Positions 33,182 to 38,063 of a DNA stretch of 64,000 bases are shown in pieces. Source of the stretch: Natrinema salsiterrestre (GTDB lineage Archaea; Halobacteriota; Halobacteria; Halobacteriales; Natrialbaceae); NCBI RefSeq assembly GCF_029502005.1, contig NZ_JAMQOT010000002.1, forward strand, positions 620,001 through 684,000, read 5' to 3'. The number at the start of each line of letters is the position of its first letter. Positions within the stretch are counted from its first letter, which is position 1. The notes under the pieces were generated by a model. That model was not told the DNA's origin. It searched no databases and saw nothing but the letters and a program-made list of their open reading frames with translations. The position numbers were made by a program, and so were the translations under genes.

Positions 33182-33652
33182 TTACAGACCTTCGAGCGAC
33201 CGCAGCTTCTGCTCGACGTCCGGCGGGGCGGCGCTCGGGCCGTCGCGCACGCGGTGGTCGGGGATCAAAAGCGGAGCGGGGTTCTCGTCGAGCGCGGTTC
33301 GGACGAGGATGATATCGTCCTCGTCGGTGTGGTCGAGTCCCGAGGTCATTCGGGCAAGCGTCTCGACGGTGACCTGATCGCCGTAGGGAACGTCCTGTAC
33401 GCCCTCGAGGACCGCCCGCTGGTCGGTCGGCATGGTCATCGCGACCGTGACGTCGTCGAAAGTGATCTCCTCGAGGCCGTCGAGGTACTCGAAAATCCGG
33501 TCGAGAACGGCGTGCTCGTCCTCGGCATTGTCGTCCGGAATCTCGGGGAACGAGACGCTCAGGACCCGCCCGCTGGCGGCGCCGAGCTGGACGTACCGAT
33601 CGAGGTACTGCGATTCCCGCGCGTAGATTCCGGCGTCCGTAACGTCCTCCAT
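33182..33652 (-). CDS. MGMT/ATL-like DNA-binding protein lacking the acceptor cysteine
   Basis: 156 residues from ATG 33652 (the longer frame upstream is rejected). The C-terminal half matches the alkylguanine-DNA alkyltransferase DNA-binding domain: VPYGDQVTVETLARM, VRTALDENPAPLLIPDHRV. In active MGMT the last motif is PCHRV; here it is PDHRV, so no cysteine can accept the alkyl group. Alkyltransferase-like proteins bind O6-alkylguanine and pass it to excision repair, which is a plausible role. The first 70 residues are not like the MGMT N-domain. Confidence 0.82.
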   Translation of the reverse strand: MEDVTDAGIYARESQYLDRYVQLGAASGRVLSVSFPEIPDDNAEDEHAVLDRIFEYLDGLEEITFDDVTVAMTMPTDQRAVLEGVQDVPYGDQVTVETLARMTSGLDHTDEDDIILVRTALDENPAPLLIPDHRVRDGPSAAPPDVEQKLRSLEGL

Positions 33653-33806
33653 ACCGGATAGAACTGCTGCGATCATATAGTGGTTGTCTAAAACTGCGGT
33701 AGATTCGGTGCCGTCTACTTCACGAACCGGAGAGCCACCGAAGGAATGACGTTTTTCATTCCAGCATCGAGAAGTCTTATGTTTTCGTTCGTGTTTCTTA
33801 GACGCA

Positions 33807-34232
33807 ATGAACTTACTGGTGGACAACGCTACCGTTGTCGAGTCAGCGGTGGCAGCACTCGTTCTGCTCGTGTTTGTGAGTATATTCGGTACTCCTCCGG
33901 AATGGATAACCGGCCAGTCGGATACCGCCATTGGAGCAGCGATAGCGGCGGGCGTCTGGATTCTGCCGTCACTGCTCAGTGGTCTCGTACTCTATCGGAT
34001 TCGCCACAGGGGCTTCCAGTGGAACTCTCTCCTTCTGGGGGGCGTCAGTCTCGCAATTCTCTCTCTCACCGTTACGGGTGTATACGCCGTTTATCGGTCC
34101 AACGGCCTCGTAACGTACGAGGGCCGCGGCGTGCTCGTCGGTCCGTTACTAGCATTGGTCGCGGGCTGTCTTCTCGCTATCACGATCCTGATTAGCAACG
34201 TGAGACAGTACTCGGACCGGAAACTGCCGTAG
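33807..34232 (+). CDS. Small four-helix membrane protein
   Basis: 141 residues with four hydrophobic segments (about 10-28, 42-62, 74-95, 108-128). No signal peptidase or lipid site, and no family recognised. Lower GC than its neighbours. Sits divergent from the ATL-like gene and just upstream of trpC, with the trp promoter following its stop. Confidence 0.65.
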   Translation: MNLLVDNATVVESAVAALVLLVFVSIFGTPPEWITGQSDTAIGAAIAAGVWILPSLLSGLVLYRIRHRGFQWNSLLLGGVSLAILSLTVTGVYAVYRSNGLVTYEGRGVLVGPLLALVAGCLLAITILISNVRQYSDRKLP

Positions 34233-34273
34233 GCCCCTCCGGAAACCGAGCGATCCGTTACAATGACGCAAGC

Positions 34274-34305
34274 CTTATGTACATATGAGTACGTCGATGT
34301 ACAAT
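34274..34305 (+). promoter_or_regulatory. trpCBA promoter with two TGTACA boxes
   Basis: tgtacat (34278-34284) and atgtaca (34297-34303) form an inverted pair twelve bases apart, each containing the palindrome TGTACA. The first overlaps the probable TATA box (cttatgta, 34274-34281) and the second overlaps the presumed transcription start a few bases before ATG 34307. TGTACA is the known TrpY box of Methanothermobacter trp genes. Repressor identity here is not shown. Confidence 0.55.
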
Positions 34306-34306
34306 A

Positions 34307-35116
34307 ATGAACTCCGATACGGAGCTCGCTCCCGCGGTGCGGTCGATACTCGAGGCGGCACGGGAGCGCTCGGGCGGGGAGGGCGTCGTCGCGGTCGAGG
34401 CGCGCTCGCTGCCCGAGGCGCTGGCCGACGCCGAGGCCGACGGGCGAGTCCCAGTGATCGCGGAGGTGAAGCCGACGAGTCCGACGGCCGAGGGCACTCG
34501 AGACGACGATCCGGTCGAACTGGCGCGGGCGATGGTCGACGGCGGGGCGGCGGCGATTTCCGTGCTGACGGAGCCGACCCACTTCGGCGGGTCGGCCGAG
34601 GCGCTGACCCGCATCCGCGAGGCCGTCGACGTCCCCGTCCTGCGCAAGGACTTCGTCCTCGACGAAGCGGGGATGGACGTCGTCGAGGCCGATCTGCTCC
34701 TGCTGATCGTCAGGTTCGTAGACGATCTCGAGGGGCTCGTCGCGGCCGCCCGGGAACGCGGCTTTCAGCCCCTCGTGGAGGTCCACGACCGCGCTGAGCT
34801 CGAGACCGCGCTCGAAGCGGGCGCAGAGATCATCGGAGTGAACAACCGGGATCTGGCGCGACTCGAGGTCGACCTCGAAACCTTCGAGTCAGTCGCACCC
34901 CACGCTCCGGACGACGTAACGCTGCTCGCCGAGAGCGGGGTCTCGTCGCCGGCCGACGTTCGGCGAATGCGCGAGGCGGGTGCCGACGCCCTGCTGGTCG
35001 GCAGCGCGATCATGGACCACGGCGCGGGCGACAGCGACGTGACCGCGAACACGCGGCGACTCACGCGAGCGGAATCGGAAGACCAGGCGAACGACGACGA
35101 CACCACCCAGACATGA
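34307..35116 (+). CDS. trpC: Indole-3-glycerol-phosphate synthase
   Basis: 269 residues, TIM barrel. Ring closure of carboxyphenylamino-deoxyribulose phosphate to indole-glycerol phosphate. [14 protein letters not shown] carries the catalytic Lys of strand 1 and [15 protein letters not shown] the second essential Lys. [15 protein letters not shown] and [15 protein letters not shown] complete the active and phosphate sites. First gene of trpCBA; its stop overlaps trpB. Leaderless or nearly so. Confidence 0.96.
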
Positions 35117-36378
35117 GCACGGAACGCGAACGCGACGACGAGTACGAATCGGGCGGGGGCACGTTCGGCGACTACGGCGGCCAGTACGTCCCCGAGGCGC
35201 TGATGCCGGCCCTGCAGGAACTCGAGGACGCCTACGAGCGCTACGTTCTCGAGAACGAGGACGGCTTCATGGACGAGTTCCGCGATCGGATGCGGGACTT
35301 CGGCGGCCGGCCGACGCCGCTCCAGCGCGCGGATCGGCTGAGCGAGCGCTACGACCGGGAGGTCTACCTCAAGCGCGAGGACCTCCTCCACGGCGGGGCC
35401 CACAAGCTCAACAACGCGCTCGGCCAGGTCCTCCTGGCGAAGTACATGGGCAAAGAGCGGATCATCGCCGAGACCGGTGCCGGGCAGCACGGCACCGCGA
35501 CGGCGATGGCCGCGGCCCACCTCGACATGCCCTGCGAGATCTACATGGGTCGAACGGACGTCAACCGCCAGCGCCCCAACGTCTACCGCATGCGGATGAA
35601 CGGGGCCGAGGTGAACCCGGTCGAGGCCGGCAGCGCGACGCTGAAGGAGGCGATCAACGAGACGATGCGCGACTGGGCGACCACCGTCGAGCGGACCCAC
35701 TACGTGATCGGGTCGGTCGTCGGCCCGCACCCGTTCCCGCGGATGGTCCGGGACTTTCAGGCGGTAATCGGCGAGGAGATTCGCGACCAGATTCGGGAGA
35801 AGGCGGGACGGCTGCCCGACAGCGTCGTCGCCTGCGCCGGCGGCGGCTCGAACACGATGGGCACGTTCCACGCGTTCGTCCCCGACGAGGGCGTGGATCT
35901 GTACGCCGTCGAAGCCGGCGGCTCGAGCCTCGAGATCGACGAGGAAAACGGAATGGCCCCCAACTCCGCGACGCTCTCGACGGGGACCGACGGCGTCCTC
36001 CACGGCGCGATGACGAAGCTCCTCCAGGCCGGTGACGGCCAGATCGTCGAATCCCACAGCGTCAGCGCGGGGCTCGACTACGCCGGCGTCGGCCCCGAGC
36101 TGTCGCATCTCGTCGATATCGGGCGAGTTACGCCCACGAACGTCGACGACGACGACGCGCTCAACGGGTTCCACCGACTCTCGCGACTCGAGGGGATCAT
36201 CCCCGCGCTCGAGTCGAGTCACGCGCTCGGGTATCTCGAAGAAGAACACGACGAACTCGGCGACCTCGTCGTCGTCAACGTCTCCGGGCGCGGCGACAAG
36301 GACCTCGAGACCGTGCTCGAGGAGACCGAGAAACGCGATCTCGAGGCCGCACCCGAAATCGAGGTGTTCGACGGGTGA
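35113..36378 (+). CDS. trpB: Tryptophan synthase beta chain
   Basis: 421 residues; joins indole and serine with [19 protein letters not shown] and LYLKRED-type sequence are followed by [15 protein letters not shown] with the PLP lysine. [14 protein letters not shown] and [12 protein letters not shown] (phosphate-binding glycines) are present, as is [16 protein letters not shown]. It is of the classical TrpB1 type that pairs with TrpA. Four-base overlap with both trpC and trpA. Confidence 0.97.
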
Positions 36379-37244
36379 GCGATACGTCGTCGGAATACGA
36401 CAGCGACATCGAAGCGGCCATCCGCGGGAACCACCCCGCGCTCATCACGTACATCACCGCGGGCGATCCCTCGCTCGAGGACACCAAGGCGTACGTCGAG
36501 GCCCTCGACCGCGGCGGCTCGGACCTGATCGAGCTCGGACTCCCGTTCTCGGAGCCGATCGCGGAGGGGCAGACGATCCAGGCGGCGATCAATCGCGCGC
36601 TCGCGGCCGGGACGACCCCCGAGGGGTTCTTCGAACTGGTCGAGGACCTCGAGACCGAGGCACCGCTGCTGGTGATGACGTACTACAACATGATTCTCCA
36701 ATATGGTTCGGAGCCGGACGTGCGGCCCTTCGTCGAACGCGCTGCCGAAGCCGGGCTCTCGGGGATCATCGTCCCGGACCTGCCCGCCGAGGAGGCCGAT
36801 CCGCTGCGGGACGCCTGCGACGACAACGGACTCGACCTGATCTTCATCATCGCACCGACGACCGAGGGCGAGCGCCTGGACGCCGTCATGTCCCGGGTCT
36901 CGGGCTTCGCCTACGTCCAGGCTCGCCTCGGGACGACCGGCGCACGCGCGAACGTGTCGGGCGCGACCTACGACAGCCTCGCGCGGCTCTCGAAGTACGA
37001 CGTCCCCAAAGCCGTCGGGTTCGGGGTCAGCGAGGGCGATCACGCGGCCGAGATCATCGAGGCCGGTGCCGACGGCGTCATCGTCGGCAGCGCGCTCATC
37101 GACATAATTGCATCGAGCGACGATCCGAGCGACGCGGTCGACGCGCTCGAGGCCAAAGCGGCGGAACTCAAACGGGGCGCACGTCGCGGCGCGGAGACCC
37201 TCACGGACGATCCGGAAGATACACCGGAACCAGAACAGCCATAA
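36375..37244 (+). CDS. trpA: Tryptophan synthase alpha chain
   Basis: 289 residues, GTG start inside the trpB stop. TIM barrel cleaving indole-glycerol phosphate. [16 protein letters not shown] leads in; [20 protein letters not shown] holds the catalytic region. The acid Glu of ELG is kept, whereas the second acid, Asp in bacterial PLADG, is Glu here (PIAEG). [15 protein letters not shown] and [11 protein letters not shown] follow. A charged 30-residue tail is extra. A short 24-base gap leads to the ADTH synthase gene. Confidence 0.96.
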
Positions 37245-37268: not shown

Positions 37269-38063
37269 ATGACCACAGGAATTGACGCACGACTCGAGCG
37301 AATCGGTACGGACGGATCGTACGTGATCGTCCCGATGGACCACGGCATCACGATGGGTGCCGTCACGGGACTGAAAGACATCGAATCGACGATCGACGGC
37401 GTAACCAGCGGCGGGGCGGACGCGGTGCTCACGCAGAAGGGGATCGCGCCTCGCGTTCACGACAACAAGAACGGCAAGGGCTATATCGTTCACCTCAACG
37501 GCTCGACGACGATCGGGCCCGACGAGGAGGACAAACGGATGACCGGGACCGTCGAGGAAGCCATCCGTGTCGGTGCCGACGCCGTCTCCTTTCACATCAA
37601 CGTCGGCTCGGATCACGAACCGGACCAGATCAGCCAGCTTTCCGAGGTCACCGAGCGAGCCCAGCGGTTCGGCATCCCCGTGCTCGCGATGGCTTACGCT
37701 CGCGGCCCCGGCGTCGACTCGGCGGACCCCGAAGCGCTGGGGCACGCGGTTCGACTCGCCGAGGAGCTCGGCGCCGACATCGTCAAGACGGGCTACAGCG
37801 GCGACGCGGAGAGCTTCCAGCACGTCGTCGAGTCGACCCGGCTCCCGGTCGTCATCGCCGGCGGGTCGAAGGGAACCGACCGCGAGACGATCGAGATGGT
37901 ACGCGGCGTGATGGACGCCGGCGGCGCCGGTATCTCCATGGGCCGATCGATCTTCCAGCACGAGGATCCCGAGGCCATCGCCCGAGCGGTCGCCGGCGTG
38001 ATTCACGACGATCTCTCAACGGAGGAAGCGCTGGCCGAAGCGGGACTGGCGCTCGAGGCCTGA
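37269..38063 (+). CDS. aroA': 2-amino-3,7-dideoxy-D-threo-hept-6-ulosonate synthase
   Basis: 264 residues, class I aldolase-like TIM barrel. This is the first step of the archaeal shikimate route that replaces DAHP synthase. YVIVPMDHGITMGAV, VLTQKGIAPRVHDNKNGKG and ADIVKTGYSGD (Schiff-base Lys) are typical; VIAGGSKGTDRETI and GISMGRSIFQHEDP form the phosphate site. Its closeness to trpCBA and to 3-dehydroquinate synthase II separates it from true fructose-bisphosphate aldolase. Confidence 0.93.
   Translation: MTTGIDARLERIGTDGSYVIVPMDHGITMGAVTGLKDIESTIDGVTSGGADAVLTQKGIAPRVHDNKNGKGYIVHLNGSTTIGPDEEDKRMTGTVEEAIRVGADAVSFHINVGSDHEPDQISQLSEVTERAQRFGIPVLAMAYARGPGVDSADPEALGHAVRLAEELGADIVKTGYSGDAESFQHVVESTRLPVVIAGGSKGTDRETIEMVRGVMDAGGAGISMGRSIFQHEDPEAIARAVAGVIHDDLSTEEALAEAGLALEA

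What the first reader, a model, noticed from the sequence alone, without database searches (positions are those of the whole stretch)
34274..34305. Two TGTACA (TrpY-box-like) sites over the trpCBA promoter
tgtacat and atgtaca at 34278-34284 and 34297-34303 flank the presumed TATA box and start site of a leaderless trpC. TGTACA is the published recognition sequence of the archaeal tryptophan regulator TrpY in Methanothermobacter. The hexamer is AT-rich and should be infrequent in this GC-rich DNA, so a symmetric pair exactly at this promoter is unlikely to be chance.
Basis: partly seen in the sequence, partly recalled or inferred. Interest (0 to 1): 0.65.

Follow-up and report, generated by a model that had tools for sequence, protein, structure and literature searches.

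The report
Conserved tryptophan-operon switch in haloarchaea
The short DNA repeats in front of this salt-loving archaeon's tryptophan genes are a real control site, kept almost unchanged in every haloarchaeal family examined and repeated at the other tryptophan operon, so haloarchaea very probably sense tryptophan with the same kind of regulator (TrpY) known from a heat-loving methanogen.

Summary
Confirmed and extended. The two TGTACA sites stand at 34278-34283 and 34298-34303; a third, weaker box (AGTACG, 34288-34293) was missed, so there are three boxes exactly 10 bp apart, from the TATA box to 3 nt before the trpC start codon. A perfect pair in one genome is only mildly improbable by chance, but conservation is decisive: in 90 haloarchaeal trpC promoters, 87 keep both outer boxes at 5/6 or better at fixed distance from the ATG, while flanking DNA is random. 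The trpDFEG operon has four boxes at 0/10/30/40 bp in the 30 genomes examined, and a second trpD of this genome has a four-box array. In methanogens of the same phylum TGTACA-N14-TGTACA precedes trpC, trpE and trpB2. The genome encodes one full-length TrpY-family protein (HTH+ACT; 242.7 bits, cut-off 180). Many haloarchaeal tryptophanase (tnaA) genes also carry 10-bp-phased boxes, upstream of the probable core promoter, suggesting activation and a candidate regulator of the p.tnaA expression tool. Best reading: a TrpY-type, tryptophan-responsive repressor covering the trp core promoters. Operator: near certain. TrpY as its binder: likely, untested. An Lrp-type regulator is the main rival.

The parts
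34278..34303 (+). Operator: three TGTACA-type boxes at 10-bp spacing over the trpC core promoter
   Evidence: Sequence; conserved in 90 aligned haloarchaeal trpC promoters; 134/194 genomes with at most one mismatch, control 0
34278..34283 (.). Box 1, TGTACA, overlapping the 3' half of the TATA box
   Evidence: TGTACA in 63/90 relatives, 5/6 or better in 88/90
34288..34293 (.).
   Evidence: G 0.99, T 0.94, C 1.00 conserved at its positions in 90 promoters
34298..34303 (.). Box 3, TGTACA, 3 nt before the start codon, over the expected transcription start
   Evidence: TGTACA in 56/90, 5/6 or better in 89/90
34267..34272 (+). Presumed BRE (CGCAAG)
   Evidence: Position and conservation only: C.96 G.89 C.94 A1.00 A1.00 G.82; inference from archaeal promoter anatomy
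34273..34280 (+). Presumed TATA box (CCTTATGT), overlapped by box 1
   Evidence: inference from archaeal promoter anatomy
34307..35116 (+). trpC, indole-3-glycerol phosphate synthase; probably leaderless
   Evidence: NF041303 431.8 bits, cut-off 380
35113..36378 (+). trpB, tryptophan synthase beta
   Evidence: TIGR00263 599 bits, cut-off 392
36375..37244 (+). trpA, tryptophan synthase alpha
   Evidence: TIGR00262 243 bits, cut-off 102
37269..38063 (+). 2-amino-3,7-dideoxy-D-threo-hept-6-ulosonate synthase (early step of the archaeal aromatic pathway), last gene of the presumed operon
   Evidence: TIGR01949 359 bits, cut-off 299; operon trpCBA-OE1472F reported for H. salinarum in PMC4162585

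Best explanation
The boxes are the operator of a TrpY-type tryptophan regulator. Shown by computation: three TGTACA-like boxes on one face of the helix (10-bp steps) cover TATA box to start codon of trpC; a four-box version (two 10-bp pairs, 20 bp between the starts of the inner boxes) lies just downstream of the TATA box of trpDFEG; both are kept across the order, and the genome holds a single full-length TrpY-family HTH+ACT protein. Inferred: dimers of TrpY, loaded with tryptophan through the ACT domain, fill the boxes side by side and block TBP/TFB or RNA polymerase, shutting off both trp operons when tryptophan is plentiful; without tryptophan the array is left and the genes are transcribed. 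A further, less certain inference is that the same protein binds 10-bp-phased boxes upstream of tnaA and switches tryptophan breakdown on.
For: Fixed operator geometry and conservation (relative entropy 1.41 bits per position in -40..-1 against 0.05 in -120..-50). Second operon with boxes at 0/10/30/40; the fourth box was not used for anchoring and still matches 3.8/6 against about 1-2 at most other offsets. Own second trpD: four-box array score 20.2, best of 2000 shuffles 9.9. TrpY_fam protein at G000:C24:214873-215361, one per haloarchaeal genome, found in all 60 haloarchaea of the phylum sample. Methanogen arrays at trpC-trpB, trpB2 and trpE, i.e. classes of gene reported for TrpY in Methanothermobacter (trp operon: PMC6737238; trpB2 and the sequence TGTACA: own knowledge of Xie & Reeve 2005 and Karr et al. 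2008). HTH residues 40-56 nearly invariant between haloarchaeal and methanogen TrpY; model = HTH (helices 44-51, 55-67) + ACT fold. H. salinarum trpCBA and trpDFEG rise together without aromatic amino acids (PMC4162585).
Against: No binding or mutant data for any haloarchaeal TrpY. The Thermococcus TrpY does not bind its trp promoter and the haloarchaeal branch of the family is said to be separate and unexamined (PMC6737238). The trpY gene of haloarchaea has no box array, so the autoregulation known in Methanothermobacter is not seen. 44 of 60 sampled genomes of the rest of the phylum, nearly all with TrpY, lack a perfect 20-bp pair. Methanothermobacter itself could not be fetched.
Confidence: 0.75

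Rival explanations
1. The same arrays are bound by an Lrp/AsnC-type regulator (for example LrpA2/Trh1) rather than by TrpY. Lrp-type multimers also read phased sites and bind amino acids.
For: LrpA2 (OE2776F) is induced 14.9-fold without aromatic amino acids in H. salinarum and was proposed as the regulator of the pathway (PMC4162585). 10-bp phasing suits any multimeric regulator. The TrpY model itself has weak matches to Lrp folds, so fold gives no discrimination.
Against: The box is TGTACA, the TrpY box by own knowledge, and arrays of it mark trpC, trpE and trpB2 in methanogens too. LrpA2 induction may be a consequence of starvation.
Confidence: 0.12
2. The arrays are a real tryptophan operator but read by a regulator of neither family.
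For: No haloarchaeal binding data; trpY is not linked to trpCBA or trpDFEG in this genome.
Against: A universal single-copy TrpY-family protein is present and TGTACA arrays extend to methanogens that share it.
Confidence: 0.1
3. Only the core promoter (BRE, TATA, start) is conserved, and TGTACA is a by-product or chance.
For: Box 1 overlaps the TATA box; single TGTACA sites are common and about 0.8 pairs are expected per genome.
Against: Boxes 2 and 3 lie downstream of the TATA box and are about as conserved as it; the same boxes recur at other positions relative to the TATA box at trpDFEG; trpY promoters of the same genomes show nothing.
Confidence: 0.02

Closest known systems
TrpY / TRP-box regulation of trpY-trpEGCFBAD and trpB2 in Methanothermobacter thermautotrophicus
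   Same: TGTACA boxes over trp core promoters; TrpY-family HTH+ACT protein encoded; targets include trp operon genes and, in methanogens of this phylum, trpB2
   Different: Haloarchaeal arrays are strictly 10-bp phased (three boxes at trpC; two pairs at trpD); trpY is unlinked and carries no boxes; two split operons are covered; possible extra target tnaA. Box layout in M. thermautotrophicus was not compared (genome not reached)
Thermococcus kodakarensis TrpY (TK1227) and Tar (TK0271)
   Same: TrpY homologue present; aromatic amino acid operons under common control
   Different: There TrpY does not bind the trp promoter and Tar, an activator, does the job (PMC6737238)
Bacterial TrpR/trpO
   Same: Tryptophan-loaded repressor covering a trp promoter (by analogy)
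   Different: Unrelated protein and operator sequence (own knowledge)
Haloarchaeal Lrp/Trh regulators (LrpA2)
   Same: Amino-acid-responsive archaeal regulators, linked to aromatic starvation in H. salinarum (PMC4162585)
   Different: No known TGTACA recognition; other ligand domain (own knowledge)

Membership tests
TrpY / TRP-box regulon | A TrpY-family protein is encoded | tested here: met
   NF053754 242.7 bits, cut-off 180, full length 1-163/163
TrpY / TRP-box regulon | HTH plus ACT architecture | tested here: met
   ACT matches below Pfam cut-off; AlphaFold2 of a Methanosarcina member: HTH helices 44-51/55-67 and ACT fold, best PDB matches ACT domains; haloarchaeal member aligns without gaps
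TrpY / TRP-box regulon | Repeated TGTACA boxes over a trp promoter | tested here: met
TrpY / TRP-box regulon | Boxes conserved at trp genes in relatives | tested here: met
   methanogens
TrpY / TRP-box regulon | Autoregulation: boxes in the trpY promoter | tested here: not met
   No array in 25 haloarchaeal trpY upstream regions. This feature is known from Methanothermobacter, where trpY is divergent from trpE; I do not treat it as essential to the family, but it lowers the claim of full membership
TrpY / TRP-box regulon | Close phylogenetic grouping with MtTrpY | tested here: inconclusive
   Methanobacteriales sequences could not be fetched; the published tree places haloarchaeal members in another, unexamined branch (PMC6737238)
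TrpY / TRP-box regulon | TrpY binds the boxes and responds to tryptophan | not testable with these tools
   Needs EMSA, ChIP-seq or a deletion mutant
Lrp/AsnC regulon | Lrp-type protein bound to the array | not testable with these tools
   Only expression data in H. salinarum (PMC4162585)

The most novel reading that the evidence does not exclude
One TrpY-type protein is a two-way tryptophan switch in haloarchaea: bound over the core promoters it represses trpCBA, trpDFEG and accessory trpD, and bound to 10-bp-phased boxes upstream of the core promoter it activates tryptophanase (tnaA). It would then be the unnamed regulator behind p.tnaA, the tryptophan-inducible promoter widely used in Haloferax genetics.
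Probability: 0.42. Interest if true: 0.75.

Novelty: new variant of a known kind. Interest (0 to 1): 0.6.

Why it matters
Regulators of the trp operon have been identified in very few archaea (TrpY in Methanothermobacter, Tar in Thermococcus), with opposite mechanisms, and the haloarchaeal branch of TrpY was explicitly left open (PMC6737238). Here is a testable regulon in genetically tractable hosts, with exact operators, a single candidate regulator gene, and a possible explanation of the p.tnaA promoter, for which the papers read here name no regulator. The phased arrays also offer a simple system for how archaeal repressors compete with TBP and TFB.

Tried and rejected
Chance, judged on one genome: not excluded, excluded by relatives. 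Boxes in the trpY promoter: none. Methanothermobacter TrpY and its operator for a direct comparison: the one genome-contig scan returned only methanogens and relatives of the window's phylum. Literature with TrpY plus TGTACA or haloarchaeal TrpY: nothing beyond PMC6737238 in the library; the TGTACA box itself rests on my own knowledge of papers not held. Hits away from trp genes: G138 and G031 only among those checked, no sensible target, taken as chance. The signature test missed true trpC loci in genus g29 because its regular expression was too narrow; their positions match. Solved structures by sequence: none useful. tnaA was added as a further tryptophan-related gene and showed the 10-bp signal.

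Full report
Observation. The sequence reads CGCAAG CCTTATGTACA TATG AGTACG TCGA TGTACA ATA ATG, with TGTACA at 34278-34283 and 34298-34303 and the trpC start at 34307. The genes downstream are trpC, trpB, trpA and 2-amino-3,7-dideoxy-D-threo-hept-6-ulosonate synthase. Box 1 overlaps the presumed TATA box and box 3 ends 3 nt before the ATG. A central AGTACG at 34288 makes three boxes with starts exactly 10 bp apart.

Chance. TGTACA is not rare enough to carry the argument alone: 4 sites in the window against 1.68 expected, 415 in the 4.79-Mb genome, about 0.83 pairs expected at spacings of 4-26, one found. Conservation settles it. TrpC was found in 193 of 194 genomes of the order. In 90 aligned upstream regions from about a dozen families, both outer boxes keep at least 5 of 6 letters in 87, at a fixed distance from the start codon, with no such pair at any control offset; mean relative entropy is 1.41 bits per position from -40 to -1 and 0.05 from -120 to -50. 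A search of 194 genomes with the 26-bp motif and at most one mismatch hits 134, nearly always once, at trpC wherever compared; the reversed pattern hits none. Exceptions seen: the trpB promoter in G010, and G138 and G031, which look accidental.

Second operon. trpDFEG, unlinked in the genome, carries TGTACN at 0, TGTACA-like at 10, CGTACA-like at 30 and TGTTCA-like at 40 just downstream of its TATA box in the 30 genomes examined, the last box being weaker and not used for anchoring. This fits the joint induction of trpCBA and trpDFEG without aromatic amino acids in Halobacterium salinarum (PMC4162585). A second trpD of the window's genome (G000:C27) has TGTGCA/AGTTCA/AGAACT/TGAACA at 10-bp steps ending 3 nt before the ATG; score 20.2, maximum of 2000 shuffles 9.9, other steps negative.

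Wider occurrence. Among 60 genomes of other groups in the phylum, 16 hold TGTACA-N14-TGTACA (one genome with the control). Eight of the 16 loci read lie directly before trpC-trpB (three), trpB2 (three) or trpE (two), as checked by position and, for six of them, by NCBIfam or Pfam. By own knowledge, TrpY of Methanothermobacter controls the trp operon and trpB2 through TGTACA boxes; PMC6737238 confirms the trp operon part.

Candidate regulator. The genome encodes one TrpY_fam protein (G000:C24:214873-215361, 167 aa, 242.7 bits, cut-off 180). All 60 haloarchaea of the phylum-wide sample have one, and 279 of 296 genomes of that sample exceed the cut-off. Its HTH segment IEIPxTxIAxExxVDRR is nearly invariant between haloarchaea and methanogens. 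An AlphaFold2 model of a Methanosarcina member (mean pLDDT 85.5) shows HTH helices followed by an ACT fold, with ACT domains as best PDB matches.

Tryptophanase. tnaA homologues (below the curated cut-off of the E. coli-type model, E down to 1e-143) occur in 115 of 194 haloarchaea. In 46 non-redundant upstream regions, 29 exceed the 95% shuffle level for three boxes at 10-bp steps, against 1-7 at steps 7-9 and 11-14. Control segments from the same loci and from trpD loci give 0-4 of 30 at 10 bp, and trpY upstream regions show no three-box excess. The best arrays (L348, L369, L401) sit at about -60 to -35; others near -90, i.e. upstream of the likely core promoter. In the window's own genome the tnaA array is weak (score 0.6, just over the 95% shuffle level of -0.1). 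p.tnaA of Haloferax is tryptophan-inducible (PMC10448506, PMC8305020, PMC6741144); those papers name no regulator in the passages read.

Mechanism. Shown: conserved, phased arrays at promoters of tryptophan synthesis, and a universal TrpY-family gene. Inferred: tryptophan-bound TrpY covers the TATA-to-start region and blocks initiation. More speculative: the same protein activates tnaA from upstream sites. Step not shown anywhere: binding of haloarchaeal TrpY to the boxes.

Limits. Positions relative to transcription starts are inferred from promoter anatomy. The relatives are anonymous genomes of one order, drawn evenly but related; relatedness does not explain conserved boxes beside randomised flanks. 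No complete regulon scan was possible. Direct comparison with Methanothermobacter was not reached.

Noticed in passing
L364 (G000:C24:248724-249114) and L330-L403: 10-bp-phased TGTACA-like boxes upstream of haloarchaeal tryptophanase genes, strongest in L348, L369, L401; candidate activator site behind tryptophan induction of p.tnaA.
   Followed up: partly
L327 (G000:C27:117500-121500): A second full-length trpD in this genome with its own four-box array ending 3 nt before the start codon.
   Followed up: partly
window 33807-34232: Small membrane-protein-like ORF between trpC and the divergent gene; weak sub-threshold Acyl_transf_3 match. The upstream DNA of the relatives aligned here does not resemble it, so it may be a local insertion or remnant.
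   Followed up: partly
window 33182-33930, minus strand: Divergent gene that looks like a methylated-DNA--protein cysteine methyltransferase (by eye, no family search); its start region (MEDAGIYARES-like) recurs upstream of trpC in many relatives.
   Followed up: no
trpY and tnaA lie on one contig within about 120 kb in roughly 20 of 27 haloarchaeal genomes where both were listed (33 kb in this genome); counted by hand.
   Followed up: no
L196:1501-1526: In methanogen G218 a TGTACA pair precedes an unannotated membrane protein followed by an ECF-type ATPase (by eye); candidate tryptophan transporter.
   Followed up: no
L246 (G010:C39): A TGTACA array lies between trpC and trpB, apparently as a promoter of trpB of its own.
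   Followed up: no
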